64,000 nt of DNA, from the NCBI RefSeq assembly GCF_000006565.2, contig NC_031468.1, forward strand, positions 1,326,747 through 1,390,746, written 5' to 3'. Origin of the DNA: Toxoplasma gondii ME49. Lineage: Eukaryota; Apicomplexa; Conoidasida; Eucoccidiorida; Sarcocystidae. A program made the position numbers and the translations under genes. Shown here in pieces: positions 227-64,000 of this stretch; the first letter of the stretch is position 1; each line of letters opens with the position of its first letter. The notes under the pieces were generated by a model, which was not told the DNA's origin, made no database searches, and saw only the letters and a list, made by a program, of their open reading frames with translations.

Positions 227-3200
227 ATGGACCAAATTCGTCTGCAGCGCATGCGCAAGTACACTCGAGGTGAGGACTCCGCGCGAACGGGTCGGTGCCT
301 TTGGAAGAGAAACCTAGGATGGAGACCCGTCTGCTTCCCCGATAGCGGTTTTCCGTCTCACCTGTTCTTCGGGCAGCTTTGCTGCTCCCGGTGCCAATTA
401 CATTTGTCCAGATTACCAGTTCCAGCCGTCTCGTTACAGTTCCGACGTGGTGTTTGCAGATACGTGCGAAGCAGATGAGAGTGTGTGCCGCTCTATGGAT
501 CGTCCATTCATGTCAACTGGTTCGTGACACCACTTCACAGTGTGCCTGAACGGCACTTTGTAACCGGTTCTTTTCTTTCGAGGAAAGGGTTCAGGTAGCA
601 TCCGGGGGCATTCCTAGTCCTATGATGTCCTTGTTGCTTTGCTTAATCTTCACTGTGTGGGGCGAAAGAATTTCTTTACTGCTTTAAATCTATGGCTTCT
701 GTTTCAATGTGTTCAAACGACAGTGGGACTGTTTCTGCTCGAGTGGCGCGCTGTTTAGGTTCTTCTTCGCTTACGCTTGTGTGATGGTCTGCAGAGGCGT
801 TTTGGGAGATGCAGTTGTTCGATTTTCCTTCGGCCTTCGCCTCCTCAGTTGCCCAAAGTAGGTGGTTCAGGTTAATCGAACGATATGTGCAGGCGCGCTG
901 TCATTTCATTTCCGTACACAGATGTGCTTCGCGACCATTTGCAAGCTGCCTTCTTCCAGACTGCCACTGATCTCTTCACTGGGGTGGAAAAGAAATGTGA
1001 ACTAAACAAACTATATATATATATATATATATTTCTGTGACAAACGAGTGTCACACAAATCACGGAGGCTTCTTCCGTTGTTTTGTATCATTTTTTGTTC
1101 TTTCCACTTTTTCTTCCGCCTGTGCAGCCGCTCGCATGTTGAGGGTCCTGTCCTGTGTGTCAAGCGTGACCTCGCAAGGATCCAAGCTTCATACTGGAGA
1201 CACAGCAGCAGGAGACGAACTTCAGGAAGGTGACAGCAACGAAAAGGAAGGCGAGGACACGGCGAGCGCCACAACTTTCGACGAGAGTTGTGGATCTTTC
1301 TCGGGTGCGAATCGTGTAGTTGAAGCATTCGACTTTGAGGGATACTTCATAGATGTGTGGTTACAACAGACGTCTGGACACGCGCGCGCAAGTCGCCTTG
1401 AAGACGAGGATGTGAGTGACTCTCAACGCAGTCAGACGACGAATGCAGAGAGGAAGTCCAGCTTCTCTCAAGCGGCGAAGAACGAGACGTTCAAGACTCT
1501 ACTCGAGAGCGGTGTGGCGCTTCTCTGCCACACGCACGCAACTGTACACCGAGAGACAGGGAAACCGCTAGGGTCAGCGATGATGCGCCACCGGTATCTC
1601 AAACGAAGAAGTAAGGAACGGAGGCCGGCGAGTCCTTTGTTCATTGTTGTCTTTGTGAGTCTCATGTGGCAAACGTAGAAAAAGTTTGTTTTGTGCAGTA
1701 CTGTCATGTTTTGTTTTGGTGCACTGAGACGAGGGACTGGCAAGCGTTCAAGAACAAGGGACGGCTTCAAGAGCGCAGGCGTGACGTAGCAAGAATGGTT
1801 ACGTTCGACACGCTCAGATTATCTCTAGAAGGCTTCCTTCAACGTGGGCTACGAAGTGCCAACGCATGGACTTAGGACCTACATGCGAAGAATCTAAAAT
1901 GAATTGGAGGAGGGATGCTTGGGGTATCTTTGATTCTGCCTGTCACTGGCACGGCATGCACATGGTGAGAGATCGTACGATCGACTGAAAGAAGGCACAT
2001 GACTTGTATGTGACATGCACACGCTGCTGTGCAGTTGGCGTAATCGCTTAGTGCCGCTTTCACGAGGAACCGGTTTCTCTCATTCGTTTGCAGGCGGCGT
2101 TCTTGTTCGCACCCTTGGCCGGTTTCTTTGTCGGGTCTTCGACGGCAGCTTCACTCGTGAAAATGCATTGCACATTTCTTACATATCTATGAATATGGCC
2201 TGCTACCAGCTGCACGGCGATGCCTCAAATGTATATCATCTCCCGAGGAATTCCCTCCTTTCGATTCCGTGTCTCTTACAAATCCATATGCTTTTGCTGT
2301 CCACTTTACTGCAGATGTGCCAACAGTAAACGTCCTCTGGGATGTGTGGAAGGTAAGACTCATTCTGCAAATCTCGCATGTAACGACTGTGGTGTCCAGC
2401 TGAAGTGTGCATGCCTTGGTAGGAGCCTTCCACAGTGGATTCGTTTTGCAGTAGGAAACGGAAATGTATTGCTGTCGGTTTGTCTTCCTTCAGATGTTGC
2501 CTACAACAGAGGCTAGGGTAGAATATCTTTCTAAGCAAATCGTCCGGGCTTTGAGAGAAGAAGAAGCACGTCGCGCGTCGCATGCCCTCAATCGGGTTGG
2601 TCATGGTTCCAAAGCGCACTCTGGGTAATCAGGCGTTGGCGCTGGTTTCGGGGCCCAACTGCTGGGGTGTTATGCCTCTAAGAATGCAGCAAGTCAGTAT
2701 TTGTCGGAGCATAACGCTCGTTAACACAGTAGTCTGTGGATTTTCTGTCTTACATCGTGTCTGCACGAGATAACCGCAGGCTTATTTAGCTGCCACTAAG
2801 TGAAAATCACGTACTCTGCACGCCTCTCATGCGATGTTAGGGTGTTGATAGGCTGGCGCGTTGATCTCTGCATAAAACGCCCTCAAATGTCTTCAACGGT
2901 TTGACGTTTTATTATTCAACAACCGTTTCATTTCCTCTACACTTCTGAATGACGCTTTCCCCGTCTGAGTTTTGCATCGCGTCACAACGCAAACCCCTCG
3001 GATCAGACACGCTTTTCGACTACACCCTGGGCAGCGGCCACCCATTCGGCGAAACCATTGTCTGCAAATGGTGAGCTTGAATTGCTGGCGAAAACCGCAG
3101 CCGGGCGATGTCGTGATTGTCGTGTCAAGTTCATCCTTGGCACTTTTTCGCACGAAGATGACTAAGGACACGCGAGTTTACGCAGCTAGGCGTAGTGAGC

Positions 3201-3640: not shown

Positions 3641-5512
3641 GAAACCTTCGGTAAACTCTCCAGGAAAAGGCGAGTCTCATTTGTTAGACAGTGTGGCATT
3701 TGCCGTCGTGAGGAGATCTAAGTTACTATAGGTTTGAATAAACACTGAGTATTTGTACGTTGGGGGAACCAAACGCGTGACAAGTTGGCGAGAGAAGGCT
3801 AAATGACAACAGTCATCCGGATTCTACCACATGTGCATGCTGCGTTCATCATGTGTGGAGTGTCTGTGAAAATCCGATGACCGTGTTCTCTATATGCGCA
3901 GTGTGAGGATAAGCTGATTCGACATTGTGGAAGTGTCCGTAAAGGGGGTTTTGAGAACAGAGTACCACGTAGCGAATTTCTATTTTTCAGCCTGGTGTTG
4001 ATGGCCTCCTGTACTCTATCTGCTGCAATGAGATCTTAGAGATCGGCTAACTCTCATTATTCACTGCTGCCCTATCTGAGCAAAGTACATAATTTTTTCC
4101 GGAGTCCTCTTGTCTTCACACGCGAACCTGTGATAGTTCTCTGAGGTCAAGACGGGGGACAATCGGAGGTCGCCGCAGCGGTCGAGGAGATATTCGCTGC
4201 GACACGCTCGCGCATTTGCTGTTATCCGACCTGTGACACCAGCATGGAAAAGCATGAGAATTCACGGATGCTTTCATCGCATAATCATGGACGAACGGTG
4301 TTGAACGGATGCAGAAAGACTAAGAACGCTTGACAGCTGGATTTCTGTTTGAACACTCCTTCCTTGGCAACAGCTTATATCACTGGTGTTGTTTTTCGCA
4401 TCGAGATATATACCGTGTTGTAGCTCGAGGGAAAAACGGTTTTCTGCCACTACAAAAAACTGTTCAACAATCCGTTACGAATCAGGCAACTGGTCTATGG
4501 TTGTCCCTCGTCAGCTGCTAAGAGCCACTTCTTTGAAGGCGCGCTTTCCTCCACTATGTCTGTTCGCGAAAATGGCGCACAGTGGAAATTTATAAAGCAT
4601 TAGCCCCATGAGGACTGAGCATCGCAGTTGCGCCGTGTCCTCCATTTGGCGTAACCGGAAACGCATCATCCGGCTCTCTCTATATTATGCAGCAAGAAGA
4701 TCTTTTTGTAGCGTGGAGGACAAGAGCAACATATGGTCTCGGGTGTCTCCAGTACCACTCAGATGAGCAGCTTCTTACAATGAGGCGGTGCTCTGAGGGA
4801 GCTGTATGCGTACCAGGTACTCTCTGGCCTCTCCGGTTCGTCTTCTCGGCGACTACTGATATTGGGACATGGACTAGCTTGGGAGCTGCACGCACTCGAC
4901 ACTCTGTGGCGCTGTCCGCTATGCTTCTTCGCCATTCTGCTGTGAGAGCCCTCGAGCGATGGAAATTCTCTTGGGGATTGCTGTTCACGAATCACGCGCT
5001 CGAGAAGCTCGAGAGATCCAAGACTTCGTTTATCGGATTCCCACATGTTACTCTCTGTAATCCGAACACACACATTCAAAAGTGTTTCTCACTGTTGCAT
5101 CGAACGGGGGTTGCTGAATAGAAGAGTTACGATGTCTCTCAGCAACGCAGACGACAGGCACTTGTCCTTTGCTGCTTGCGTACTTGCCACCGGATGAGGA
5201 AATGCTTCAGTGACAATGTTTTCAAATCTATCTCCCTGTCGAATCCAACCATGTTCTTCCGCTTCTCTCTGCTTCTGACACCAGACAGTCACCAACCGTG
5301 CTGCTGGTTAGGATCACGCATGTACACAGTCCACACGACCGGTATCACCGTCCTTCAGGCTACGCACAGCTGCTGCCTCCTCCAAGCGAGAAAAAAGATA
5401 ATTGCCAGAAAGAAAAATGATGACTGTACCTTAATCTGCCTGCAATTGCAGGGAGATTTCCCCCGGAGTGAGGTTCTCTTTGTCTAAAGGGGAAGCCGTG
5501 TCACACCATATA
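3641..5512. other. No supported gene
   Basis: This stretch lies between the 3' end of the first plus-strand gene and the 3' end of the minus-strand gene ending at 5513, so it is a convergent intergenic region. Open frames such as 4687-5121 on the plus strand show no recognisable domain and have open frames opposite them on the other strand. I see no RNA gene. Confidence 0.5.
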
Positions 5513-47398: not shown

Positions 47399-50300
47399 TT
47401 AAGAAATAGCCGCGAACTCTTTTGGGTGCCACAGCGCCTTCTGGATGTCTCGCCAGACCGCAAGAGAAGAACTAGAGCGGAGAGGAAGCGAGTTCGGTTC
47501 TATTCCTTCTTTTTCGCTTCCGCTGCTGCTTGCCGATGCAGTCACGGGTGTACAGGTACGGATCTTGCACTACAGGAGCCACTGGAGCGTGGAACGTTGC
47601 ACAGTGCCTCTTCGTCTAGTCTCTCGGAGTCATCTTGGCAGCAGTTGATTTCGAGCGTCTGCGCTTCGCGGACTTTCTGGAAGCCACCCGCATCACCGGT
47701 GGCCAGCCTCGCCCCCTATCGCCTTCCTCCTTCTCCACCTGCTGAGCGCACAGGTACGCCCTCACAGCTTCCTCCAACAGAGCCTTTTGTGTGGCGGATC
47801 GCGAGGAGAAGGAGCGGCCATCCTCGCAAGAGAAACCAGGCGACAGGCCATCCCTTTTGGTCAAAAAAGAAGTGCAAGAGGAAGCCGACTGACGGCGCGT
47901 TTCATGTACGGCTTCAGGCAAGACAGGCACTGGCTTGGTCTCGACGGAACACGGTTCGTTACCATCTTCTTTCTCACCATCTTCTTTCTCACCATCTTCT
48001 TTCGCGTCATCCTCTTTCTCAGCGTTTTCTTGACGACTACCTTCGTCCTCACCTTCCCCTTTCTCTTCCTGTCCTTTCTCTTGTCCTCTCAGGGCTGTCA
48101 CGGCTGCACGTTCGGAGCCTCCAACGTCCTGCAGCTTCTGCTCACTGGTTCGACCTCTTTTTTGCGTGCATGCGAAAGTCTCCGCACTCTGCCGTCTCCA
48201 GCGCATGCGGCGAGCGTCCTGTGAAGAGCCTGAGAATCTGACAGCAAGGCCTTCTCGCATCCTCTGTACGTGTAGGGCGTCGCCCGAGTCTGTCGCTTTT
48301 CCTGCCTCTCTCTGAGGTGCCTTTGCATCGACGGCTTTACCGCTTTTGTGGCGCTTCTTCTGGTCCATCAAACCCAGCGTTGTCTCCTGAGAAGGCCGAG
48401 ACGAATCGCTGTAGATCCTGTTCTCCAAGTCCACTGCAGCGACCTCCATCCCTGTGCCTCGAGGATTCTCATCGCTGCTTATTCGCTCTGCTGCCGTCTC
48501 ACAAGGCTCCCAGGTGTGGCTCTGCCTTCCCGCCTCAGCCTCAAAATTGTGCGGAGCCTCCTTTGGCTTATCCGTATTCTTCTCTTCAGTCTCCTCCTCC
48601 TGACCCGTTTTATCCTGCAGCGTTTGTGTCTCCTGCACCCTGTTCTTCTCTGTCTTTTCCTTACTCGTCGTTTCAGTCTCTTCTTCCTGACTTTTCTTCT
48701 TCATCTTGTCCACCTGCGTATCCGTGTTCTCGTCCATCTTCTCACTTCTCTTCTTTCCAGTTTTCCGCCTCTTTGTTCCCCGTACGAGCTTCGTCGTGAT
48801 CCCTGGCTGCATGCGCTGCCTGAGAGGCTCCCGTCCTGCGCGTCCCTGGCGCCTGAGCTCGACCGCCACCTCGGCAAGCTTCGCTTTGGAGGCGAAGAAG
48901 GCAAAACATGCGGAAAAGGATTGCTTCTTTTGCTCTGCTGCTTTCTGGCCTTTGGTCTTCCCCTGGGTGGAAAGACTCCTCGAGGGGAAAGGAAGCGCCT
49001 TCACTTTTTCGCGGTTCTTCTGTAAACCACGTTCCCCTTCCACACACCTGGCGTTGCCAGGAGACGTTTCCGAAGACTTCGAGATCTCAAAGACATGTCC
49101 ACAACGCATGCAACAGCGTTTGAAGCTCTCCCCCTCCTCATCCGTGAATGCGGCGCCTTTGTGTGACAACAGGCCATCATGACTCTGCCTTTTGTTGGAA
49201 GAATGCGCCTCGTCTAAGTGGCGTCTTTTCCCCTGTTTCGGTTCCATTCCTTCCTCTTGTTCTACCTCTGCTGTCGTGCCCCTCTCTTCTCCGCCTTTTC
49301 CAACTTCCGCCTCTCCAGTGTCTTGTTCGTCAGCGCTCTCGCTTCCATCTCTTCTCTCTTGGCCTCCTTTTCCTGTCCCTCCTTCGCTTTCGGCCTCATC
49401 TCTTCGTCTTTGTGCATCACAACCTTCCTCGTCCGTGGCGCCGGTCTCGCGACCTCGATCGCGTTCTGCTTGCCTTCCTCTCCTTTCTACTCGCGGGACC
49501 TGAATCGCGCCTACCAAAGACGCACTCGAAAGAGCATTCTCTTTCTCGTCGTTCTCCCTGCATGCCTCCCTTTCCTCACCCATAACTTTGGAGAAACCGT
49601 CTTCCTGTTTTCGTCCCGTTTCGTCATCTCGCGCCTCTTCCCAGCCTCTCACTGGATTCGATACTGGTGAGCCTCGCCAAGCAGGAGCGCTTGCATGCAC
49701 ATCCATCGCGATTTGTGGCTTGCAGGCCCTGCTCGAAAGATCTTGTCTGTCAGACAAAAGAACGGTCGCGTTAAGTCGCGAGTCAGAAGAGAGACAAACG
49801 CCGTCTTCGTCGTTTACTGTGTTTTCCATTGCATCTTCCTCAAGCGTCCGGCCTGGCATTGCATGTGCACACTTGCATGTTTCCTCTCCCCGAAAAGGCG
49901 CTTTTTGCGAGTGGGACGTTTGCGCCGGAACACCGGCTGCATGCGCCGCCGCGGCTGCTGAGAGAAGCGGACGTCCAGGATGGTCCGAAGCCGAGAAAGG
50001 CAAAGACTGAGAGTCGGAGGAGAGAGGCGAGGACGCAGAATGTGGGGACTTCTGAGGCGAGGGCGCAGGACAAGCGGAGGCCGACGGGGTCGAGGGGAGA
50101 TGACACAAAGACACAGAGGAGGCAAGCCGTTCCACGGAGGGCGGAAGGGACGACAGGATCGAAAAACAAGGTGCAGAAGTTGTCGCTGAAAGCTCGGCGC
50201 AGTGAGAGCATAATGCCTCCACGCGCCTGCGGCTTGTTGTGCCCTTGATGCTGCTGTGTGGCTTTCCCTCTCGGCTCTGCGAGTACCGCGCTCCCTTCCT

Positions 50301-50620
50301 GCCGCAGGCCTGCGTAACCGTCCTCGATTTCTTCGAACTTTGGAAACCACGAAAAACAGAAGCTGCCGCGTTGAAACAGACCAAACGCAGAAGCTGCTGA
50401 AACGTCCGAGACGACAACCCGCGGATCTCTCCTCGCGCCTCGAACACGGTGGGAGAGACAGAAAGAGAACGAGACGAAGAAGTCGAAGGAGAGACAGAAA
50501 GAGAACGAGACGAAGGAGACACGCCCTTGGAGAATGACGCAGTGGGCGATGAGCGCCACTGGAACGGGATAGGCTGACGGGTGTAGGACAAGACAGCGTC
50601 GATGAGGCGCATGCAGAGGT
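47399..50620 (-). other. TERT: TERT C-terminal exons
   Basis: The exon starting at 50620 joins in phase to give YIL-DLCMRLIDAVLSYT, as in the penultimate helices of animal TERT. It then runs into about 900 codons of charged low-complexity sequence, ending in ALLEEAVRAYLCAQQ near 47755. A plausible last exon at 47471-47399 follows a CTCTAG acceptor and reads AVWRDIQKALWHPKEFAAIS then TAA, resembling the usual TERT C-terminus (an Ala-rich helix, Pro-x-x-Phe, Ile). The connection between them is unresolved. Confidence 0.55.
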
Positions 50621-50680
50621 CTGCAAAGAGAACGAAGAAACATGCACTCATTGACACAAGTGACCCTAACGTATATAACC

Positions 50681-50711
<31 letters not shown>

Positions 50712-53700
50712 GCTGGAAAGGCGTATGTCATACATATATAGATATATACACTAGCGCATAAACAGAACCTTTTATCATTCAGCACCGCTGGCTAGAGCCG
50801 TGGCTAACGCAGACGCAAAACGCATCTTTTAGGTTTTGTTCGAAGCGCGTCTGTTTCCTAAAATTTTGCTTTCCGTTCGTGGTGCGTCGCTTTCGGTCTC
50901 TCTCTCCTCTTCTTTCCAGCCCCGTTGAATTTCTGTCTCTGCATCCTCCACCTTCTCGCCTTCTAACGAGCCGCCGCTTTTTCCTCATCTTCTCTCGCGT
51001 CCACCTCAGCAACTTCCAGTGTGTTACCGTCGGAGTTCCGTGGTGTGTCTATCCCCCGCTGTCCTTTTTTCGTTTGTTTACTGTTCTCCATTGCGCCGCT
51101 CGTATCGGCAACAGCCTTTCTCTCGACTCCCAGAGGTCTCCGCCCACCTTCCCTTCGCGCGCCCCCAGGTCACCACACTTAAGTCCTTCTCTCTCATGCC
51201 TCTGTTGCCCCATCTCCTCCTCACCGTGTTTCTCCGTTTTCTTCTCTTCTCTTCCTCTTTGTAGTTTTGATGAGCCCAAGGTCTCTTGCGTCTGCCTTTC
51301 CCCAGCTCACCAAGGATGTACGCAGGCCTGAGGAAGCCGGCAAACTCTTTGGCGATTCTCTCGAGGCCGCAACGGAGTTTCAGGAACGCAGTCTTCACCA
51401 CTACGTAAACATTTCTGCATGCAGCCTCTGGAGAATTCAAGCGGAGATCGACGAAGACGCGCGTGGTCCCGAGGCGCATTGCCAGGTGCCCCAGAAGGCG
51501 CTGCTCCAGCATCTCCTGCATGCAAAAAGTCAAAAACAAGCGGCGGTCGGGGGCGCGAGAAGAGGGCACAGTCGCAGAAAGGGTCGCAAGGCTGGGGGGA
51601 AAGACATGGGTGAGACAACGCCGTCGGAGTCGGTCAGCAAAGGCGAGAGAGGAATGTGGCCGCATAGAGTAGAGAAGAGAAAGGAAGAAGGAGAGGACGG
51701 ATTGAGCATAGAGCGAAGGAGGGAGCGGAAGAAAGGAGCCCAGACGGACAGACAGAAGCTGAGGACAGGGCGCAAGCACAACACGACAGCAAACGATAAG
51801 AAACCGGAAGCATAGAAACTTGACACACCACCCCGAGAGAAGCGGCTGCCACGGAGGCCAGCGGGGGATTCGAAGGCCAGTCAAGTCACCATCATCCTCT
51901 GCTGAATCAGCCCCCACACCTGGTGGGTTTTGCAGAAAAACAAAACAAGATAAAAAGAAGATTACGAAAAGCTGTCTCGGATGTTGCAGACCCACAGCCA
52001 TGAACTCTGCGCCGTTCGCCGTGGCGCCCCGGCCGAGGAAGGCCCTCTTGCCTCGCTGCAGCGCCAGACTGTCGCGGATCGAGCTCTGGACGGAAGTGTC
52101 TCCAAGTGTCTCCTTGTTCGCGCGGCGCCCGCGCTCCCTCGCCTCCGACAGCGAGCCTGAACTCTCGACATCTGGAGTCACGTCTCGTCGCAGCAAAGGC
52201 AAAACACAGAACCCCCGTCGCTGAACGTCGAAGGCGAAGCGAACGCCCGCCCAGCACGGACCGGAGCCGCTTGGAGCAGAAGCAGACGCACAAGGCGAGG
52301 AAGAAGAAGAGAGAGAGGAAGCAGAAGAGGAAGAGGGTTGCGAAGAGAGAGAAGAGGAGAAAGACGAAGATGAAGCAAACGAGTGAGAAGACAAAGGTGG
52401 ATAGATTTGGAGAGAAGAATACGTTGGAGAGGGACTGGGCGTTTTGACCTTCCGCTCGACAGAACTGGTGTCTCTCTTGATTTTCTTCCGAGCCTCCGTC
52501 TTCTTCGCAAAAGGGGTTGAGCCTTCCTCGGGTCTCGTCCGCTTCCTTCTGCCCACAGTCATATCCCCTGCGTCGCTTCTCCCCAAACCTTTCGTTTGAT
52601 CTCCCACGGCTCCTGAGAACTCCGTTTCGGATTTTATTTCCTCGTTTATCCTGCCAAGGTTCTGGCCAGGTCCCCAGTTTGTCTCGCTTTTCCACCGGCA
52701 CGATCGCAGACGCGTCAGACACTCTTGAGCCTCGCGCTCACACCTCGCCGCGACCTCGCGAACTGCGTCTCTTTCGCTCTGGGTACCGGGCGATGCCGCA
52801 GAGAAGGCGGCAGAGGGCGTCCGTGGAGCGTCGGCTTCAGCCTGATTCCTCTCGCCGCTTCGCTTCTGAAACGCCGCGGCTGTGGACGACCAGCTGCCAG
52901 CGAACAGATCTGTTTTCAGCTTTTGCCTGTTTACGTTTTTTCCCCAAACGTTCTTCTCGAGCAGGAGACTCAAAAAGGCCTCAGCTGCAGCGCGGCTCGG
53001 AGACAGAAACAGAAAGTCATCCACCCAGCGCATCAACAGCGGCGGCCATACCAGACGGCTCAGCTCCCTCTCCAATGCATGCAGAGCCTCGCGCTCCGAC
53101 CGACGCAGCCGACAAAATGAAGCCTGGGAAGAAGAAGACGAAGGTGAAGACGAAGAAGAAGATGCAGTCGGTGGTGAAGGAGACGGTGAAAGAGACAATG
53201 AAGACGAGGGAGGCGAATGCGAGGGCGAACACAAGGAGAGCGAACTCGATGTACATGCGGCAGGAGAAGACAAGGAAGACGAGGAAGTCGAGAAAGGGCA
53301 GCTAGGAGTGGAGTCCGAAGATACCGGCAAGCCACAGGACGTGGTGTGGGCGCGAATGGCTTCTACTCTTGTTTTGCGTGCGACCTCCAGAATGAGGGGT
53401 CCGACATGACGGAAGAAGACGTCTCGTCTCTCCGCATGCTTTCGGTCCCCGCCTCCTCTCTTGTCTCTCTCTTCTGTCTCTCGTCTCGACTTTTTCTCTT
53501 CACTTCCGAAACGTCTCGCGTCCTCAACAGCCCCGAGTCGGTTCGTCTCCCTGTCTTCGTCTCCACTTTTCTTCGCACTGCCCACGCTTGCGTGCAGCGC
53601 CTCGCCTGCATCTGTCTCCACAGCGCTCGGCCTTGCGAACAGCTGCAGAGACCCGGCGCGATGCGAGGTGTCTTCTCCACGCAGGAGAGCCTGCACCTCC

Positions 53701-56700
53701 GGCCTTGCATCTCTGTCGGCATAGAAGAGAGCGCAGAGAAGGCCAGAAATGTTTGAGCCTTGAGGGATGCCAATGGTTTGCCGATAGACTCCTTTCGCCT
53801 CCTCGCGCCTCTCTCGCTCTCGGCCTGGACACTCTTCTTTCTGTCCTCCTCTCACTCCTTCTGTGCTCCATGCGCGTCCTTCAGAGCCTACCGCAGGCTG
53901 ACCGCCTCTTGCTTGGTGCCAGTCTTTCGCTCCCAGATTCGGCCCTGCCTTGCCGTCTTCTCTTCCCAAAGACAGGCGTTGTCGAGCGCCCTCAGGTTCC
54001 CCGTCCGTTTCTCTGGTGGAACACGGTTCTCCGCTTCTCTTTGCGGCCTCTTCTTGCGTTCCGAACGCGCGCTGTGACAACGGGTCTGACCCCCCCGTCC
54101 TTTTGTCTCCAGGAGGATCTGCGGCAGCCTCGAGAGCCGCCCCGTGACGCCCTCCTCCGTGCACCGGCGGAAAGCCGGGAGGGTGCGCCGGCGAGTAGTG
54201 GAAAGGTTGTCGCCGCTGACAGAAGCGAATGCGATGGTGACGGAGAAGCAAGCGAACAGAGAGCAGCAGCTCTCGCGAGTCGAGCATCAGCCGCTGATTT
54301 GAGTCCGACACAAGTACCACACCTCCCGAACTCGACCCACGCAGCAGGCGCCGGCGGAACACTGCCGCAGCATCTGGAGGCGACACCCGAGAATTCGGCT
54401 CTGGAAAGGGAGCCGCACAAGAAAAAGAAGATGAAGAAGGAAGAGAAGCAGAGAATGAAGAATCGAACGAAGACCATTCGATGCAAGCAGGTAGAGATCG
54501 AGAATCAGGCGGTTTGCTTGAACTCGAGAATGACATGCTCCAAGAACGAGACGACGAAGTTGCGTCCATTCGGACAGCCGTCGTTGCCCTCGAAGACAAA
54601 CGCGCCGATTCAACGCGGACGTGGTGTCCCGCTCGTGCCCGACTGAGCGCCCCAGTGGAGACAGACGTCTCGGCTGTCTCCTGTCTCCGTTTGTCTCTTC
54701 CTGCCGGGAGCAGCAGAGTTGCCAGGAGAGGCTGGCGGCCATCGCGCGCGGGGACAGCGACTTCGTCGACTCTGCCGATGGACACGAAGTGTGCTGTTTC
54801 TGTCTGGCGAAATCTGGCAGCCCCCGTCACTCGCTTCACGTTTCTCTCTTCCTCTTTCCCCTCCCCTCCTTCTGTCCCCTCTGCGCCTCTCGTCTTCTTC
54901 AATTCGTTCTCTTCTCTCTCCCCCTCCCTCTGCTTTGAGTCTCGTCTCGTCTCCGCCACCCGCCCTCCACCTGTTTCCCTTGCCTCGCCTTTCCCTCGTC
55001 CGCCGCTACCCCTAGCTTCAGTCTCTCGTTCCTCCCTGTCTCCGCGTGCTTCTCTTCCTCTTCCTCCTCTGCTTTCTTCTCTTCCCCTCCACGGCGCGTC
55101 TTTGCAGGGCGCATCCTCCGTGTGGACATTCGCTTCGTTGCCGTCTTCGTCGCTCGCTCGACTTTGCTCGCGTAGTCTGCCCGGCCGACGCGTCTCTGCT
55201 CTTTCCATGTGCGCCGCGCGTCCCTGTCGCCTGTTCCGCCGTTCTCGCGAGGCCGCTCGGCCTCCTCGGACTCTCGCTCTCTCGCGGACCGGCGGCGAAA
55301 CGACGCGTTTGTACAGTTTCAAGACATGCATCTTCTGGACGTTTGCGCGAGCCAGAGCGCGCTGGACAGAGCGCAGGAGCTCTGCATGCGTGAGGCCTTC
55401 GTAGCACGCCTGGAGGTCTCCGACGACGCAGAAGATTTGAGAGAAGGAGACGCGTCTCACCCTCGCTCGCGGCCCGAGGCGCGCGACCAGCTGCTCGACC
55501 TTCTTGAACGATCGGAGGTAGAAGCTCCACCAGGCAAGCAGGCGCCGATGCACATCCGAGAAAGACAAAACCGAGCACCCGAGCACGGAGGGATGGAAGC
55601 GACAGAGTGCCGCGAGCGAGCTGCGAATCGGACTCGTCAGACTGTTCAGCGAGAGCGGAGCACGAGGCGCGAACGTCGAAGGTCGAGAGACCGAAGGAGA
55701 AGACAAGGCAGAGACGGCGGGAGACGAACTACGACGAGCACTCGAAACGGACGACGACCCCGGCGGGCGCTGGGACGCGGCGGCAGCTCGTCGATCGCTT
55801 ACAAGACCCCTCCGGAGCGCTGGAAACGACGCGCCTCGCAACGAAAAGCTTCGCACGGTCCCCGCACGGTTCGCGCTTCTCCTCGTCGTGTCACACACAT
55901 GCGAGCGAGAAGACAATCTGTGAAAAGAAGAGAAACAGTGAAGAAACGGAGACGAGGAAGAGGAAGAAGAGAGACGCGATCGAAGAGCAGACGAACTCGA
56001 CACAAACGGAGGGTGTCGGGCGTGGAGCTGTCGAGCACTCAGAGAGGCCAAGAAGGCGCCAAGGCGTTGACGGACAAAGTGGGCGTACGACTGTGAAGGG
56101 AACGGCGGAGGCAATGGAGATGGCAAAGAGTCGAATAAGAAGGACGATGCGATCACTGGCAAACGTGCAAGCAACTGTTTTTCGTCCTCGATTCCTCCTT
56201 TTCCAATGCTCTCCATCGAGCCTTTCCCCATCTCTCGGTTTGCAGCGCGAAGCACGTTCCGTAGGACCATCTGCACCACCCGCTTCCTGAGTTGTTTTCC
56301 TGCCCTTTCGCCATCTTCCTCTCCTTGCTGTCGCCCCGTTTCTCCCGCTTCAGGCCTTCGTTCCTCTGTCTCGCGCCGACCAGTTCTCGCCGCCGCTTGT
56401 AGGTCTCCCACAGCGTCTCCAGAGCCTCCTGCCACCGCCCAGGTGTCTCCAAAAAGGAGACAGAAAGCCCCGGCGTCGCGCAGAACCTTCAGCCGTCTCT
56501 GCCGAGCTGCCTGACGCCTCTCGCGGTCTTCCTTTGCCTTGTTCTCCATCCTCTCCAGAGCTGCAGAAAGGAGGTGTGCGAGCAGCACGCCGCTGTGAGG
56601 CTGAGAGAGATTCACGAGGGGTCGACAGCCTCGCGCCTTGGGGAGAAACCGGACAGTGGGGACCGACGAGACTCTGGCAGCAGGACAGGACAGCGCAGGA

Positions 56701-59700
56701 CGAGACGAGGTGAAAGACAGGAAGGAGCGAAGAGCGAAGAGCGAGGACAAAGCTGGCAGACAAAGCGAGACGAAGCTGCGTGAGACACGGGGAGAAGGTG
56801 GAGAGAATACGAGAGCGAAAAAGCCAGCAAGACATGCAGAAGCGTCACGCCCCGATAAACTGAGACACAATTGGAAACCAACGCATGCGCAAGTGAAATC
56901 AACGAATCTGCAGTCGACGACTTCTCAACAACTGTTTTCCCTTAGTTGAAACACCTGACTGATAGAACAGCAGACCGATCGGTTTATTACGAGCGACCTC
57001 CTCCAAAATCTAGCCAACTCTATGACTCTCGATTCCCCTGAAGGCGGCGAGTGGAACAGAGGCCTTCAAAAGCGTTTGCGGTCGCTCCGCACAGAATCTG
57101 GACCTCGTCGAAAGCAAGCTAGGTTTCACGAAAAGCTGGAACACAGCTCCAGAGAAAGAGACGAAAACCGATGTTTGCTCTCTCTGTCGCACTTACTCTT
57201 GCACTCTGGCGAGGATCTCTGGGTTCACGTAGTCCTCGATCTCTTGTGCGAGCCAGTCGTCGTTTTCGTCTTCTTCATTCTTGTCGCTTTGCCGACCTGT
57301 ATGCGCCCATACTCCTCCGTCTACTCCTCGTCCCCCTTCTACCTCTTCAGGATTTTCCCTTCTTTCACTCCTCTCAAAGACAGCCTCTGTCTCCTCTCTC
57401 CTTTCGTGTCTCCGTCGTTTGCCTCCTTTCTCGGCTTCCCGCGATGAGACTTCATCCCGCCGTCTCTTCGCTCGGTCTCTCTCTCGTCTCTCTTCTTTGT
57501 CCTCGTCTCGCGCGCCTGGTCCTTCTTCGCTTCCCTCTGAGCTCCCCAAGGACAGTCGGGTGCGTCTGAGGCCTCCGTGCTTCTCAGCCTTCTCCAGAGA
57601 CCTCGTTCCCTTCTTCGCCGTCTCTTGCGTTTCTTTCGGACCGCCTGCTGGTCGCTGTTTCTCTGCCGCCCGGCTTCTCACATGCCTTTTACTGAGACTG
57701 GCCCCAGGCTTCAGAACGCTTCCTTCTGGGCTCGCAGGCGCCGAAAAGACCGCTGCGTTCTCCGCGAGTCCTCGCACCGCTCTTCGTTCCTCGGCCTCTC
57801 CGCGGGAGTCCAAGTGGGCGAAGCACGAGCGGTGGAGACTGAGGGCGGCCTGCTGCTCGACTGCCAGCCAAGCAATCTTTCGGAAAAAGCGCATGCGATG
57901 TGCACTCGGCTCGGCCTCTGTCACGTAAAAATGTTGTCTGCGACGCGGTGAAAACAGAAAGCGCAGGCCAGCAGAAATGGAAGGAACTCTGCGGACCGGA
58001 GCTGTGTTGAAGAAGAAAACGGACCAGGTTTCAGACGAAATTCCAAGTGAAGAGTCGGTGCGGATTCAACAAACGGCGTGGGGAAACCAGTGGCTCACCT
58101 CCATTGGGTTTGGGGGATGGAACATATGGATCTCAAGCGAAGCCACCGACTGTCTACACCTTTTCACTACGTTGTGTAAAGAGTGCTATGAAGGCGTTCG
58201 ATCTGAAACTAAAGACGAAACATGCATGGAGAGACTTGGTGCAAGCGGCTCCACTTCTGCAGCTCGATGACAGTTCGAAGCGAGAAGGAGAAGCCTTTAG
58301 CCTTTTTTGCCATCCACGCGACAAAGCTCGCATGCCCTTTTTGTCGCCTACCTCAACAGGGGGATAACGAGCTGGGTGAACAGAAAGAAGACAATGCGAC
58401 TCAGAAAGACCTCCTGTAGACGCCCGCGAGCTTTCTCTTTCACTTCCATTTTTCGTCCTTCTTTGAAATCGTGTACTCCTCTTGCCTTTACGCCGCGCCA
58501 CTGGTGGTTCGTCTCGTTTCCTTTCTCGGTCCTTGCAGACCTCTTCCATCTCTCCCTTCCCTTCCTCCTCTCTCGGCTGCTCGGAGTCGCTGTGGCTCTC
58601 TCCCTTTCGGTCTCTGTCTCCAACGTCTCCCCGGCTTTCTGGACTCTCTGCAGCGCATTTCGCATCCTCCCCACACGCCGTACGTTCGCCTTGCGACTCG
58701 GCTCCCAATTCTGCGCATGCACAGTTCGCGACCGCGACTGGCGACGGGCCGAGCGCGAAGCCAAGGCTGTGTAGGGCCGCATTTTCATCGAGTGGAGAAG
58801 CATGTGGAGTGTGACAGACTCACGCGAGTTGAGGAGCGCAAACTGCTTTGCTCTCTTCAGAAACAAACGAAAATTTCGCTGTCCACCTAAAAGCTGCGGA
58901 GGCACAATGCGACGAAGCGCCGCGAGCAAGAACGCAATCACCCGATCCGGAGGTGTCTCCAAACGGAGGACGGCGAGACGCTCACAACGCGAAGAAGAAA
59001 GAGAAGCAGGGTGAGACGGGAGAGAGGGGAGAGGAGAAGACGGAGACGAAGGAGCAGATGGAGGAGGTGAAAACAAAGGAGAAGGAGCAGACCCCGAAGC
59101 GTCGATAGAATGTGCAGAAACGCGAGGACCGCGAGAAGACGCAAAGCGAACGTTGTTGGGCAGCGAAGCTGGAGACGACGAACCGGAACCTCGAGAAGAG
59201 AGCGAACAGTCGCCACGGCATGACAGAGAAGAATTGCCTCGTCGGGGGCGCTTGGCGGGGCAATGGCGTCTGAGTAGTCGAAGAAAATCGCATCGGCTGT
59301 ACCGCGCTAGAAGCTCCTTGAAGCCTTTCAACAGCCATCTGCAGAGGCGACCGAGACAGCCGGACGTCACAAACAACGGACAGCGAAACCGACGATTTCA
59401 GAGACAACCGTCGCCACTTGAGCAAGCACCCGGCCATGTTGAACAATTGACGAAACCTTATGTGTGACACTCAAACCAGTTTTTCGTTACTTCTCGCCGA
59501 TGAACGGTGGATTTCAGGTGTGACAGGCACTACTCATCGGACAGTTGATCATTTTGGCCCCCAGCTACTTTCATTGGGCGGCGATTCATGTTCTAGCTCT
59601 GTGTCTCTGCATGTTTATTTTAAGGGCACAGGTCGAGACCGCGAATCATCTGGGCAAAACCCGCGTCAACGGGAAATGTGCTAAATGCAGCAGGTAGTCT

Positions 59701-59727
59701 AGCGAGGACCTTAATGTCCTTAACAGA

Positions 59728-59762
<35 letters not shown>

Positions 59763-62700
59763 ACTTGCCGGAATGACAACACGGAAACAGAGAGACAGGA
59801 CAAGTGAGAAACTCAGAAACAATATACAAGCGGAGACGGATGACACAGACGAAGAAGGGAATCCGTAGGGGATCCTATGAGGACAGCTTCCGCGTTTCAC
59901 AGCGTCTTCTGTCTCAAGGCTCGGAGCATCTCGACGTCACATCCTAGAGGCGTCCAGTCGCCTTGATATGCAGGAGACAAAGCAAACGAGAAGGAAGTGT
60001 AAAAGGACAACAGAAGACACCTGAACCTGAAAACGAGAAAACGATGGCTGCATCTACGCTCCATCGAGACACTCGAAACTAACAGTGCGGCAGAGACTGC
60101 ATCTGGGGTGTGTTTGAAAACAACCTTCTTCTGCAGCAGTCGCGTTACTGTTACATCAGATTCGTTGTAGAAATGTCAAGTATTGGTGCACAACAGATGC
60201 TCTTCTTGCGCCACTGCATAGTCACCTGTTGATTTCGAACACTGCGTATCTACGAACCTAATTAGATTATTCTCGTCCCCCGGGCATGCAGGTCAACCAT
60301 GCCAATGTCGGATCGCAAAACATCCACCTCTATTTAGCACACGATCGCTCTGGAAGAGCCATCATGTCGTCACATAGGAACATGCAACGCCTTTAGGTGT
60401 CTTCAGCAGTAGCTGTAGATGGTTCTACTTCTCGAGCTTATCTCCACATTGCCGACATGCGTGGACGGAACGGAAACGCACCGAGATAAGGCGCTCTTGA
60501 AGGCGACAGACTTCGTCAGTCTCTGGCGAACATGCTTGAGCATCTTCTTCTCCATTTCGATTTCGTTCTTCTCTTCGTTCTCGGCTTCTTTCGCCTCTCT
60601 CTGGCGAATCCGAGTCCTGTTTTTCTGCTCCTCGTCGCTTCTGTGTTCGTTACCATGGGCGACCTGTGGCTGCGCCGAGAGCGCCCCTGTCGCGTTTTCT
60701 GTCTCTCCTTCAATGCGTTGCTGGGCGTTGCCATTTCCGTTTGTCCTCATCTGCCGCAGTCTTCTGCGGAGAGCTCCAAGCACCTCCCGCGTCTCCCGCG
60801 TTCTCTCCCCAATGGCTCTGGCGACCTTTGCGGCGCCTCGGCATCGGCCAAAGGCCGACGTTAACGGGGTGAAAAGGAGCGGCGAAAAAAGAACAAATTT
60901 AGTCAAAATTCGCGCTTCAATGCCTCCGTCTCCACAGTCCTCTCCTCCTCTGTTTTTTTCTTTGACATCTTCTTTGTCGTCTCGCTGCGATGTTGCTTCT
61001 TTCAGAAGTTTTTCACACCGGCGTTTCCTTCGCGTAGGCGAGACGCAATTCGGTTCTCCACCTCGGCCTCCGTCCGCCGTGGTCTCTGCATGCTTGGCTT
61101 CCCCTTTGCTCCTCCCCGTCGCTGCTCTCTGGGCGCTCCGAAGTGCCAAAGTGCTCATCAGCGCGTAGCTCGGCAACCCACCCTCTTTGTTGAAGCTGCT
61201 ATGGTGGCAAATCAGCTGACGAGGAAGGCGAAGATTGCTGGGTCTGACGCCTGGTTGTCGAGAGGACTGTGTGTTGAGAAAGAGAGGCGAAGTCTCTCGC
61301 TTGTGCGAGAAGAGAGCCAAAGAAGGAGAAGTCCCTGACGAACGAAGACGGCGATGGAGGTGAGAACGCCGTTTTGCTTCTCGGGTCGCGAGTCTCCGGC
61401 GGCGACGCAAAAGCGCCATCAGCCGTCGCCTGTCCCGACGCGATTTACAACCGTCCATCTCTTTTTCTCTCTCAACTTCACCTGGCACTGTCGCATCTGG
61501 TCGAGGAGAGGAAGGCGAAGGCGAACGTGAAGTTGCTTTTTCTCTCGAATTCGCCGAGACCCTGTGCCCTCTATTCTCAGTTTCCAGATTTCCTTCCCCG
61601 CTCTCTCGGCCGGTCGCATGCCCTCCTCTGTTTCCTCCACCTTCGAGTCCTGGCGTTTCTTTTTGTCCTTCACGCGTGTGCGTTTGGGTCTCGTCGCCGT
61701 CCCTGCCCTGCCTGTCTTCTCCTTCCTCGGCCTCTCCTAGTGGTCCAAGCGTTCCCTTTTTCTTTTCTTCTTCATGTCGACCTGCTCCTGGAACTCCAAA
61801 CTCCCGGTCCACGGTTCCTGTCGCTTCGCTCTCGCTCCCGTCTCCTCCCCGCTGTCTCGCTTGCTTTGCATTCCGGTTTCTGACCCTCTGGCGCGCTGCG
61901 GCGCGAGAGGCCAAGCAGTGAATGTGGCGAAGCTCGCAGAGGCGAGCCTGTGTAAGAGGCTCACCAGATATTTGGATGTACAGAGACCGCGCCGGATTCA
62001 CTTTTCCTTCCTTGGCTCCTGCCTTCTCTTTGAAAGCCGCATTTGCTTTCGCTCCTTCGCCTCGCGGGTGCTCCTCCTTGTTTTGCTTGACAGATGGCTG
62101 ATGGCCTTGTCGCAGACTCGAGAGATCCTGAGACGGACTGGCATTCGCACACCCTGTCTCCGCGCTCGCCTTGTGCAGGTTGCTGGCATTCCGCGGTTTT
62201 CTCTCTTCGACCTCGAGTGACTCGCTGTTTGTCGCCGCTGCGCGAACGCGAGACGCGCCCTGAGGAGTGTCAGACCGCGGAGACGCGGCACCGGCAGTTG
62301 AGCATGAAGCCGTTGCGGGGGGAAAAGAGGCAGCCTGTGGCGAAGATGGAAATGCGCAAGCAGGTGAAGAGGGGGAAATGAACGACTGCGAAGTCAAGGC
62401 ACCGCAGGGAAGGCAGACGGAAGGATGCGAAGACCCATCGGTACGGGAAAGATGAGGGGGAGGTCGACTGTCGGTCGCGCATGATTCGGCTTGTTTGCAT
62501 TGGAGCTTCTTCTTTCTTCTCTCTCCCCGGCTTCTGCCTCGACACCGCTTTCTCCCTTTTGCTTCTTTTTCCACTGTCGCTTCCTGGCCATTAGGGTCGC
62601 GTGCAACCAGCCGGCTCTCTCGTTTCTTCTTTCCAAGCTCCTTCTCTCCGTTTCGAGTGTTCTTCTCTTCTCTCAGCCTTCCCCACCGTTTTTCGCCGGT

Positions 62701-64000
62701 TTGCCGCCTCCCTGAGTCCGTGCTGCCGTCGGATGTCTGGCGCCTTATTTCTCTATCACACTCGTCTTCATTTCCTTCCCCTTCGTCGCTCTCCTCTCGC
62801 GTTCTCCCCTTCTTCGTTGTCTCGCTATCTCCTCTCTCTGAGCCGAGACGCGCATCTGAACCACCGGGAGAAGGCCGACGAGAAGCAGCATGGGAAGCCA
62901 AAGGAGAGAAACAAGCCGGAGAACGAAGTGCGAGAGCGGGCCAGGTCTGCGAAGGCGCAGCGCCGAGAGAAAACTGCCGCGAGTCCACGAACATGCAAGT
63001 GAAGGTGAGTAAATGCGTCATGAGGCGGCTGCCTATCCGCTCGTAGAGTCGCTGCCAAGCTGGCGTCTTCAAAAACAAATTGACGCCGTTCCAGCTGTGC
63101 ATAGACACCGTCGGAAGGCACCCCAACGGCCTCGAAGTGGATAGCGAGCAGGGCGACACGATCGCAGGGATTGCAGACGAATAAGCAGACGAAACAGAAC
63201 GCAAAGAAGGCACAGAGAAACCCGTAGGAGATGGAAAGGAACGCGGACAGAAAGACGAGGAAGCACTCAAGGAGGAAGGGGACAGTGACGCAGAGGCCTC
63301 AGATATGCATGCCCCGCGAGCTGCAACGTCTGGAGAGAAGCGAGGAAAAGATGGACGTGAGGAAGACCCCGGAGTTGAAGACGTAGGAAACGTGCAAGAG
63401 GCAGGGAGGGAGGAAAGAGAAGCCGGAGCGCATGCAGGCTGCGCAGAAATCGGGTGTGTCTGACGCAGGATCGACTGCCGGGAACAGGACGGACCAGGCG
63501 AACCGCTGGGAGCGCTGTGCGTGGAAAAGCCAGCAGTGAGGACAGATCTATGGAGACCTGGGGTGCAACACAGAAAAGAACAGAGAAGGCAGCTGACGGT
63601 TTGAGAAGGAAATCCTGGATACCTGTAGACTCGCGACAACTGTTCGAGAAGTTACATTCAGGTGGACAAAGCTCGCAGGGCAGGGGCTCGCGGGCATGGC
63701 CACAACCGGTCGACACCGAAGACGAACATGTTCACAAAAAGGCAGCAGCAAACACAGACGACCGCAGAAAAGGTGCGACGAGGTCTTTGCGTCCGATCTG
63801 CGGCGCTTTAGATGTAGACTCTTTTTTCGCCATTCCTGGAGGCGGTTGAAAAGCAGCCCTGCAGCAACTTTCATCGCATAATCGACAAGACACAAGTAGC
63901 GAGATCTCGCCGGACGACAGGACAGCGAGTGAAAAGGAAAGAAAGCAGGCACTTACTGAAGGCGGACGGAAACGGACCCCATTCCCCCCTTCTCTGGTGC
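47399..64000 (-). CDS. TERT: Telomerase reverse transcriptase (TERT), very large, 5' end outside window
   Basis: TERT copies its RNA template onto chromosome ends in the nucleus. Recognisable motifs run in the correct order on the minus strand: TEN (LPTVSMHSWNGVNLF, AWQRLYERIGSRLMTHLL), CP (GFKELLARYSRCDFL), QFP (RNFRLFLKRAKQFALLN), T (HFYVTEAEPSAHRMRFFRK), motif 1 (VRFLPKARGCRPLVN), A (VVGDLQACYEGL), B' (TIGIPQGSNISGLLCALFY), C (MRWVDDFLFL), E (WAGVRFAFDVQRRGF) and the C-terminal extension (DLRLNSPEAACRNVYVVVK, DLCMRLIDAVLSYT). The catalytic Asp of A and both of C are present. Confident exon edges are 59338 (start), 57937-57197, 56673 (start), 51311 (end) and 50620 (start); phases agree across 57197/56673 and 51311/50620. 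The open blocks total over 4,000 codons because of long Arg/Ser/Glu-rich insertions. The 5' end continues past 64000, since a GTAAGT donor near 63957 closes an upstream exon. Confidence 0.93.
50681..50708. repeat. AT dinucleotide microsatellite in a TERT intron
   Basis: About 14 AT units between the exon ending at 51311 and the exon starting at 50620, close to the acceptor. Probably neutral. Confidence 0.9.
51311..56673 (-). other. TERT: TERT reverse transcriptase and C-terminal extension block
   Basis: This block has no stop codon over 5.3 kb. It starts at 56673 with VSSVPTVRFLPKARGCRPLV (motif 1), followed by a 240-residue insertion and SVLGCSVLSFSDVHRRLLAW (the VLGLDDIH region). Motif A is at about 55440-55390. 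A roughly 380-residue basic insertion precedes SDSNQRLMLDSRELLLSVRL, another insertion precedes motif B' (53785-53750), and a further one precedes motif C (53035-53005). Motif E lies near 52260-52215. A probable intron (GTGGGT near 51998 to the CAG before EMLEQRLLGHL near 51520) precedes the C-terminal extension, which ends FLRPAYIL at 51311 before GTGAGC. Confidence 0.85.
57197..59338 (-). other. TERT: TERT RNA-binding domain exons (CP, QFP, T motifs)
   Basis: One exon starts at 59338 after a CTCTGCAG acceptor and reads WLLKGFKELLARYSRCDFLR and RRHCPAKRP (CP motif). After a Ser/Arg-rich linker it reads LLGGQRNFRLFLKRAKQF and SRESVTLHMLLHSMKMR (QFP) at about 58890-58790. The exon 57937-57197 opens with HFYVTEAEPSAHRMRFFRKI (T motif) and ends NPEILARVQE before GTAAGT. 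The helix that should lie between QFP and T (the FLHWLM-type region of animal TERT) was not found; it is probably in a small exon between 58.3 and 57.95 kb. Confidence 0.82.
59734..59760. repeat. TA dinucleotide microsatellite in a TERT intron
   Basis: About 13 TA units in the roughly 1 kb non-coding gap between the TEN block (ending about 60403) and the CP exon (starting 59338). The gap has several in-frame stops on the minus strand, so it is best read as an intron. Confidence 0.9.
60403..64000 (-). other. TERT: TERT N-terminal block: TEN domain and start of TRBD
   Basis: An exon visible at the extreme right edge ends near 63957 before GTAAGT. A possible exon near 63880-63640 carries CELCPPECNFSNSC in one frame and ends before GTATCC. 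The open block 63639-60403 holds the TEN signature (AWQRLYERIGSRLMTHLLTF, about 63070-63005), a long Arg/Glu/Gly-rich linker, and RQLICHHSSFNKEGGLPSYA (about 61220-61160), which corresponds to the start of the RNA-binding domain, in the LYSS...LRPSFLLSSL region of animal TERT. Beyond about 60.9 kb the reading is low-complexity, and the exon may end before the stop at 60403. Confidence 0.8.

What the first reader, a model, noticed from the sequence alone, without database searches (positions are those of the whole stretch)
47399..64000. Exceptionally large TERT with long insertions between every conserved motif
Canonical TERT motifs appear in order on one strand over more than 16.6 kb, and the open blocks add up to more than 4,000 codons, with the 5' end still outside the window. 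Animal TERT is about 1,100 residues, and even the enlarged Plasmodium protein is smaller than this estimate. Insertions fall between motif 1 and A, A and B', B' and C, and C and E, that is inside the RT fold. The IFD-like region between A and B' carries the longest ones. Either the enzyme tolerates large disordered loops, or some are spliced out in frame.
Basis: partly seen in the sequence, partly recalled or inferred. Interest (0 to 1): 0.85.

Follow-up and report, generated by a model that had tools for sequence, protein, structure and literature searches.

The report
Giant insertion-filled Toxoplasma telomerase protein
The gene is the Toxoplasma telomerase enzyme, predicted to be about four times the usual length because a normal-sized enzyme is interrupted at many points by long, probably unstructured stretches that its closest relatives carry at the same places.

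Summary
Confirmed and sharpened. The minus strand encodes telomerase reverse transcriptase (TERT) of Toxoplasma gondii. With database relatives as guides I resolve 8 exons and 7 GT-AG introns, from ATG 65442 (1,442 bases past the window end) to the stop at 47616: 4,639 aa, about 508 kDa. Thirty-two islands conserved with Besnoitia total 1,113 aa, the size of one ordinary TERT; the other 3,526 aa are insertions. With insertions removed, the RT/CTE core matches 4 PDB chains, all TERT, best 7e-10; unstripped, the one match has E = 0.94.

The insertions look coded, not spliced out. About 71 stops are expected in them and none occur in frame. No in-frame GT-AG pair fitting the seven introns' rule could remove 60% or more of any of 20 large insertions. 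Besnoitia keeps insertions at every site, Cystoisospora where its model covers, Cyclospora at most.

Enlarged apicomplexan TERT is known, most of this protein is in public records, and a 2018 review calls T. gondii TERT long. New here: full model, extreme size, island map. No transcript or protein data were available.

The parts
63957..64000 (-). Exon 2, part inside the window (whole exon 64069-63957; exon 1 is 65442-64328, outside the window)
   Evidence: GT-AG junctions, limits taken from P0001; translation conserved in Besnoitia
60482..63557 (-). Exon 3, aa 410-1434: TEN-like blocks and TEN-RBD linker with 7 insertions
62968..63099 (-). TEN-like island aa 563-606 (HSWNGVNLFLKTPAWQRLYERIGSRLMTHLLTFTCMFVDSRQFS)
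   Evidence: 34 of 44 identical to Besnoitia, 15 of 32 aligned to P0007
61891..62001 (-). TEN-like island aa 929-965 (SLYIQISGEPLTQARL...), about 320 aa after the first
   Evidence: 27 of 37 identical to Besnoitia, 12 of 29 aligned to P0007
61141..61242 (-). Island aa 1182-1215, T2-like (name recalled)
   Evidence: 23 of 34 identical to Besnoitia, 14 of 34 to Cyclospora
58352..59338 (-). Exon 4, aa 1435-1763: RNA-binding domain, first part
58729..58944 (-). Pfam Telomerase_RBD match, CP/QFP part (motif names recalled)
   Evidence: 45.5 bits in the genome search; 55.4 bits in the frame, cut-off 25
57197..57937 (-). Exon 5, aa 1764-2010: T motif (QHFYVTEAEP) and a 208-aa insertion
   Evidence: (17.8 bits to the end of the RBD profile, below the cut-off alone)
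51996..56673 (-). Exon 6, aa 2011-3570: motifs 1, 2, A, IFD pieces, B', C, D, E and the RT insertions
56535..56673 (-). Motif 1 island aa 2010-2057 (VRFLPKARGCRPLVNLSQ; its first residue comes from exon 5)
   Evidence: aligned to human TERT 620-637, weak alone (0.7 bits); 36 of 48 identical to Besnoitia
55515..55664 (-). Motif 2 island aa 2348-2397 (HPSVLGCSVLSFSDVHRRLLAWW)
   Evidence: aligned to human TERT 670-696, weak alone (4.6 bits)
55371..55502 (-). Motif A island aa 2402-2445 (FCVVGDLQACYE; Asp 2430)
   Evidence: Asp invariant in all 10 rows of A3 (two of the rows are the same T. gondii protein)
54219..55349 (-). IFD region: conserved pieces (aa 2453-2467, 2639-2666, 2781-2803, 2808-2829) and insertions of 171 and 114 aa; a third of 142 aa follows before B'
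53673..53792 (-). Motif B' island aa 2972-3011 (GVYRQTIGIPQGSNISGLLCALFYADRD)
   Evidence: aligned to human TERT 812-850 (16.5 bits)
52890..53105 (-). Motif C and D island aa 3201-3272 (LLMRWVDDFLFLSPS; Asp 3229, 3230)
   Evidence: start of the match to human TERT 862-1006 (15.6 bits)
52185..52259 (-). Motif E island aa 3483-3507 (PCWAGVRFAFDVQRRG)
51516..51995 (-). Intron 6: no stop in the exon frame, length a multiple of 3, GTGGGT...GCAG
51311..51515 (-). Exon 7, aa 3571-3638: first CTE block (VFVDLRLNSPEAACRNVYVVVKTAFLKL)
   Evidence: within the match that ends at human TERT 1006
47616..50620 (-). Exon 8, aa 3639-4639 and stop: four conserved islands (aa 3645-3661, 3709-3732, 4196-4233, 4587-4615), insertions of 463 and 353 aa; absent from the partial record P0001
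   Evidence: 77.7% identity to Hammondia over 1,006 aa; islands shared with Besnoitia and Cystoisospora

Best explanation
A single T. gondii gene encodes one very large TERT. An ordinary TERT of about 1,100 residues (TEN-like, RNA-binding, RT and CTE blocks, with the three catalytic aspartates) is cut by 24 internal segments of 33 to 463 residues, most of them polar and probably disordered, at the joints between conserved elements (shown: frame, motifs, conservation). They are translated with the protein and loop out of the fold, so that the standard telomerase cycle still runs: template RNA bound, TTTAGGG copied onto chromosome ends (inferred). Most sites were set before the coccidian families split, and the segments grew most in the Toxoplasma/Besnoitia/Cystoisospora group (inferred from length comparison).
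For: Telomerase_RBD 45.5, 55.4 and 79.6 bits, cut-off 25. Stripped RT/CTE core against the PDB at E up to 10: 4 hits, all TERT (three human, one of entry 6d6v at 0.013), best 7.4e-10. Profile A5: 10 hits, all TERT, four of them below 1e-4, best 9.1e-9. Asp 2430 invariant in all 10 rows; all three Asp invariant in the 7 rows of A4, which leaves out P0001, P0007 and P0008. Seven canonical introns, open frame of 4,639 codons. 32 islands total 1,113 aa. Insertions at the same sites in relatives. No stop in frame against about 71 expected. In-frame removal of 60% or more possible in 0 of 20 large insertions. FoldIndex positive in 11 of 11 islands of 40 aa or more, negative in 17 of 21 segments of 60 aa or more, N-terminal leader included. 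Four TTTAGGG repeats in a row: 1,631 overlapping matches, 0 in the reversed control.
Against: Synonymous codon use did not single out the coding frame in the insertions (best in 7 of 25). Only 5 of the 25 segments reject a chance open frame on their own at 0.01. RVT_1 stays at 12.0 bits, below its cut-off of 29.6. The AlphaFold model of motifs 2 to E is poor, pLDDT 36.5. The Hammondia model omits some segments. Six of the seven introns have lengths divisible by 3, so introns that keep the frame are usual in this gene. Exon limits 1-7 come from a predicted record. No RNA or peptide data.
Confidence: 0.87

Rival explanations
1. Most insertions are in-frame introns and the mature protein is close to normal size.
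For: One real intron (51995-51516) is stop-free in frame, and 6 of 7 introns have lengths divisible by 3. The Hammondia model treats parts of the 1-2, A-B' and CP regions as non-coding.
Against: About 71 stops expected, none seen; the other six introns hold stops in all three frames. 0 of 20 large insertions can lose 60% or more through one in-frame GT-AG pair that fits the rule met by all seven introns. The Hammondia omissions remove pieces conserved in Besnoitia: half of the CP island (also 48 of 71 in Cystoisospora), VSIGRVDEVAVPARDGRQPLL (11 of 28 in Cystoisospora) and FVRQRLGAF (only 4 of 21 in Cystoisospora). Besnoitia keeps an insertion at every site, Cystoisospora where its model covers.
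Confidence: 0.06
2. The full polypeptide is made but cut by proteases, so the working enzyme is several associated fragments.
For: P. berghei TERT shows two bands, about 240 and 220 kDa, and its authors suggest processing (PMC4183507, passages). Long polar loops would be easy to cut (inference).
Against: No evidence in T. gondii. The P. berghei change is small.
Confidence: 0.12
3. Several isoforms exist; a few insertions, above all in exon 8, are variably spliced.
For: Three of 20 insertions (2224-2347, 3733-4195, 4234-4586) hold an in-frame pair that could remove 33-53%.
Against: Codon-shuffled controls reach the same or more in 32-67% of shuffles.
Confidence: 0.15
4. Non-functional remnant or merged neighbouring genes.
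For: None beyond the great length.
Against: Frame intact across 8 exons, catalytic Asp kept, aligned island residues 95% identical to Hammondia and 99.7% of island residues matched in one Besnoitia protein, telomere repeats present, and it is the only Telomerase_RBD match at E up to 0.001 in the genome.
Confidence: 0.02

Closest known systems
TERT of Hammondia (P0002, 4,030 aa model), Besnoitia (P0003, 4,530 aa, UniRef 'Telomerase reverse transcriptase') and Cystoisospora suis (P0004, 3,163 aa model)
   Same: Same islands and insertion sites where the models cover
   Different: Insertion sequences differ (28% identity to Besnoitia, 19% to Cystoisospora over aligned residues). P0002 and P0004 lack parts of the N-terminal region, so their full lengths are unknown; P0002 lacks half of the CP island
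TERT of Plasmodium (P. berghei 2,312 aa, PMC4183507; P. falciparum about 280 kDa, PMC5855555)
   Same: Apicomplexan TERT, enlarged
   Different: About half the size; sequence and insertion sites not compared here
TERT of Cyclospora cayetanensis (P0006, 2,092 aa; P0008) and unnamed P0009 (47% identical to P0006; Eimeria-like by inference)
   Same: Shared islands (1, 2, A, IFD pieces, B', C-D, CTE) and most sites
   Different: Most insertions shorter, some nearly absent; database models incomplete
Ordinary TERT, e.g. human (PDB 7qxa) or unnamed P0007 (1,604 aa)
   Same: RBD, RT motifs in order, CTE block; catalytic Asp
   Different: 11 residues between the B' and C matches in human, 223 here; 32 between motifs 1 and 2 in human, 334 here (counted from the alignment ends)

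Membership tests
TERT | Telomerase RNA-binding domain (PF12009) | tested here: met
   45.5, 55.4 and 79.6 bits against cut-off 25; human TERT 3.1e-8
TERT | RT motifs 1, 2, A, B', C, D, E in order with three catalytic Asp | tested here: met
   Collinear match of stripped core to human TERT, 7.4e-10 in all; motifs 1 and 2 are weak alone (0.7 and 4.6 bits). Asp conserved. Motif A was read by eye and by alignment, not by the PDB match
TERT | General RT profile RVT_1 (PF00078) | tested here: not met
   12.0 bits, cut-off 29.6; a general RT profile, not one that defines TERT
TERT | CTE | tested here: inconclusive
   Core aligns to human TERT up to 1006; TERT_C only 13.3 bits in Cystoisospora, cut-off 27, and not listed for the T. 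gondii core or Besnoitia
TERT | TEN domain | tested here: inconclusive
   Islands 563-606 and 929-965 align in part to P0007; no Pfam match in that exon's frame
TERT | Telomerase activity and binding of the telomerase RNA | not testable with these tools
   Only the TTTAGGG arrays are seen
Enlarged apicomplexan TERT | Length well above 2,000 aa through insertions between motifs | tested here: met
   4,639 aa, 3,526 aa outside islands
Enlarged apicomplexan TERT | Insertion sites shared with Plasmodium | not tested
   No protein named as Plasmodium came up in three protein searches

The most novel reading that the evidence does not exclude
The insertions are not idle. They carry short lineage-specific conserved elements (basic islands aa 739-760 and 1113-1139, a hairpin suggested at 3092-3108 between B' and C, an IFD element at 2639-2666), and these bind the parasite telomerase RNA or chromosome-end proteins in cis, doing work that separate accessory proteins do in other eukaryotes.
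Probability: 0.15. Interest if true: 0.8.

Novelty: new member of a known kind. Interest (0 to 1): 0.5.

Why it matters
It maps where an RT fold accepts hundreds of extra residues and proposes exon limits for a gene that the public records seen here hold as partial or under a general name. If the conserved pieces inside the insertions work, they would be parasite-specific parts of an enzyme that is essential in the related P. berghei (PMC4183507).

Tried and rejected
Codon-usage and base-position scores trained on the islands did not separate coding from intron sequence (frame 0 best in 7 of 25 segments on each score), so they are not used as support. The AlphaFold job on motifs 2 to E with 10 rows gave pLDDT 36.5 and pTM 0.36; no fold search was run on it. 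RVT_1 does not recognise the RT domain, and the ten RVT_1 matches listed in the genome search lie on other contigs. hhalign of A4 against P0007 aligned only the RBD, probability 98%. Three protein searches listed no protein named as Plasmodium; each scored only about 8,000 candidates. Rfam found nothing in the window at gathering scores. The paper on the large Plasmodium TERT (PMC549419) is not held. Searches for 'TgTERT' (4 papers; titles and abstract starts concern mammalian ageing and cancer) and for RNA-directed DNA polymerase with Toxoplasma and telomerase (1 paper, on viruses) listed no study of the gene. Searches for background on long insertions in Toxoplasma proteins gave 1 paper, on Plasmodium WD40 proteins, and none. 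Considered and rejected: artefact of assembly (28 member sequences in the P0001 cluster; only 2 differences over 3,638 aa), merged genes, pseudogene.
Full report
Source. The window lies in a 65.3-Mb genome, contig C2. The encoded protein equals a record named 'RNA-directed DNA polymerase, partial [Toxoplasma gondii GAB2-2007-GAL-DOM2]' at 3,636 of its 3,638 residues; the Hammondia orthologue is about 82% identical over aligned residues. I therefore take the organism to be T. gondii.

Gene. I read 14 kb past the window end and mapped P0001 and relatives to the DNA. Eight exons result: 65442-64328, 64069-63957, 63557-60482, 59338-58352, 57937-57197, 56673-51996, 51515-51311 and 50620-47616, all on the minus strand. 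All seven introns are GT-AG, 258-1,143 bases long and 3,907 bases in all. The spliced frame is 4,639 codons with no internal stop, 508 kDa, pI 9.9. Exon limits 1-7 were taken from P0001, a predicted protein, so the agreement with it is not independent; the canonical splice sites were checked afterwards. P0001 ends exactly at exon 7. Exon 8 rests on Hammondia (77.7% identity over 1,006 aa) and on islands shared with Besnoitia and Cystoisospora.

Identity. Telomerase_RBD is over its cut-off in the raw frame (55.4 bits) and rises to 79.6 bits when insertions are removed. It is the only match of that family at E up to 0.001 in the genome. The frame with motifs 1 to CTE gives only one PDB match, to a TERT at E = 0.94. 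The same residues without insertions match 4 chain sequences, all TERT (three human, one of entry 6d6v at 0.013), best 7.4e-10. The match is collinear through motif 1, motif 2, B' and C to CTE of human TERT; B' and C to CTE carry the score, motifs 1 and 2 are weak alone. A profile with two relatives gives 10 hits, all TERT, best 9.1e-9, six of them above 0.1. The general RVT_1 profile does not recognise it (12.0 bits).

Islands and insertions. In an alignment of five orthologues, windows at least 50% identical to Besnoitia give 32 islands totalling 1,113 aa, close to a whole ordinary TERT (human chain 1,132 aa). The islands were chosen on Besnoitia, so its 75.8% identity there is built in to a degree. 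Cystoisospora was not used for the choice and shows the same contrast: 61.9% in islands, 19.2% in the rest, over aligned residues; its model covers 70% of island residues. The remaining 3,526 aa lie outside islands. Inside the RT domain the insertions lie between motifs 1 and 2 (129 and 124 aa), A and B' (171, 114 and 142), B' and C (80 and 92) and D and E (210). Others split the TEN-like region, the RNA-binding domain and the CTE side (463 and 353 aa in exon 8). Between the human-matched ends of B' and C there are 223 residues here and 11 in human TERT (counted).

Are the insertions coded? For: over 25 segments (3,453 aa, the N-terminal leader included), dinucleotide shuffles predict 71 stops; the coding frame has none and the other two frames have 44 and 87 (sums over the rows). 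Five of 25 reach P below 0.01 alone; the rest do not. A splice rule that all seven real introns satisfy finds no in-frame pair able to remove 60% or more of any of 20 insertions of 60 aa or more (2.1 expected after codon shuffling), and no qualifying pair of 60 bases or more in 17 of 20. The rule comes from the same seven introns and ignores weaker sites. Besnoitia and Cystoisospora models hold insertions of similar length at the same places, for example 208, 233 and 264 aa before motif 1. Against: codon-usage scores were uninformative. Six of seven introns have lengths divisible by 3, so an intron that keeps the frame is usual here. The Hammondia model leaves out three stretches. These contain half of the CP island and two other islands conserved in Besnoitia (one of them weakly in Cystoisospora), so I read the omissions as annotation errors.

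Relatives. Cyclospora (2,092 aa) and an unnamed protein, Eimeria-like by inference, share core islands and most sites, with mostly shorter insertions; a few sites are nearly empty in them, such as 9 aa after the first TEN-like island in Cyclospora and 12 aa before motif 2 in both. Most sites look older than the split of the coccidian families, with later growth; this is an inference from lengths, and the alignments of fast-evolving stretches are rough.

Nature of the insertions. They are rich in S, R, E, A and G and poor in hydrophobic residues. FoldIndex is negative in 17 of 21 segments of 60 aa or more (leader included), and positive in 11 of 11 islands of 40 aa or more. In the AlphaFold model the ten-residue blocks above pLDDT 70 lie in or next to islands, but the model is too poor to use.

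Mechanism. I think the islands fold into an ordinary TERT and the insertions loop out at joints. Catalytic aspartates are kept, and the genome carries TTTAGGG arrays, the expected product. Expression, RNA binding and activity are not shown.

Prior knowledge. A review states that the TERTs of P. falciparum and T. gondii are longer than others (PMC5855555; passages; section 3.1 read). P. berghei TERT has 2,312 aa and its title calls it essential (PMC4183507; start of abstract and passages). Public records already hold most of this protein and its relatives. In eight searches of the held library (listings, of which I opened three papers in part) I saw no description of the full gene or of its island pattern; most subscription papers are not in that library. 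I therefore rate it a new, extreme member of a known kind.

Noticed in passing
window:55401-55433 (aa 2425-2435): Motif A in the seven coccidian rows of A4 reads VVGD...C[Y/F]E, where the unnamed ordinary TERT P0007 has VAAD...A-F-D. Cys and Glu beside the aromatic residue are invariant in those rows.
   Followed up: partly
window:62506-62571 and 61369-61449 (aa 739-760, 1113-1139): Two strongly basic islands inside the TEN-side insertions are 82% and 67% identical to Besnoitia (18 of 22, 18 of 27); possible RNA-binding or nuclear-targeting elements.
   Followed up: no
introns of the TERT gene, 64327-50621: Six of seven introns have lengths divisible by 3 (258, 399, 1143, 414, 480, 690; the exception is 523), about 0.7% by chance if each is one in three (my sum, seen after the fact). 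Introns may have arisen from, or turn into, in-frame insertions.
   Followed up: no
P0002, P0006, P0008: Public gene models of Hammondia and Cyclospora drop conserved TERT pieces: part of the CP island in P0002, T motif in P0006, start of B' in P0008.
   Followed up: partly
G000 contigs C1786, C871, C1397, C1012, C1368, C1521, C1299, C1393, C1518, C1710: RVT_1 matches, ten listed, every one on a contig other than the window's. Fragments of other reverse transcriptases, perhaps contamination or mobile elements.
   Followed up: no
window:20100-21647 (+): 516-aa open frame with a weak RlmL_1st match (30.9 bits, cut-off 27).
   Followed up: no
G000 contig C1 from 1859137: Array of the telomere repeat TTTAGGG, at least about 750 bases long in the part listed.
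   Followed up: no
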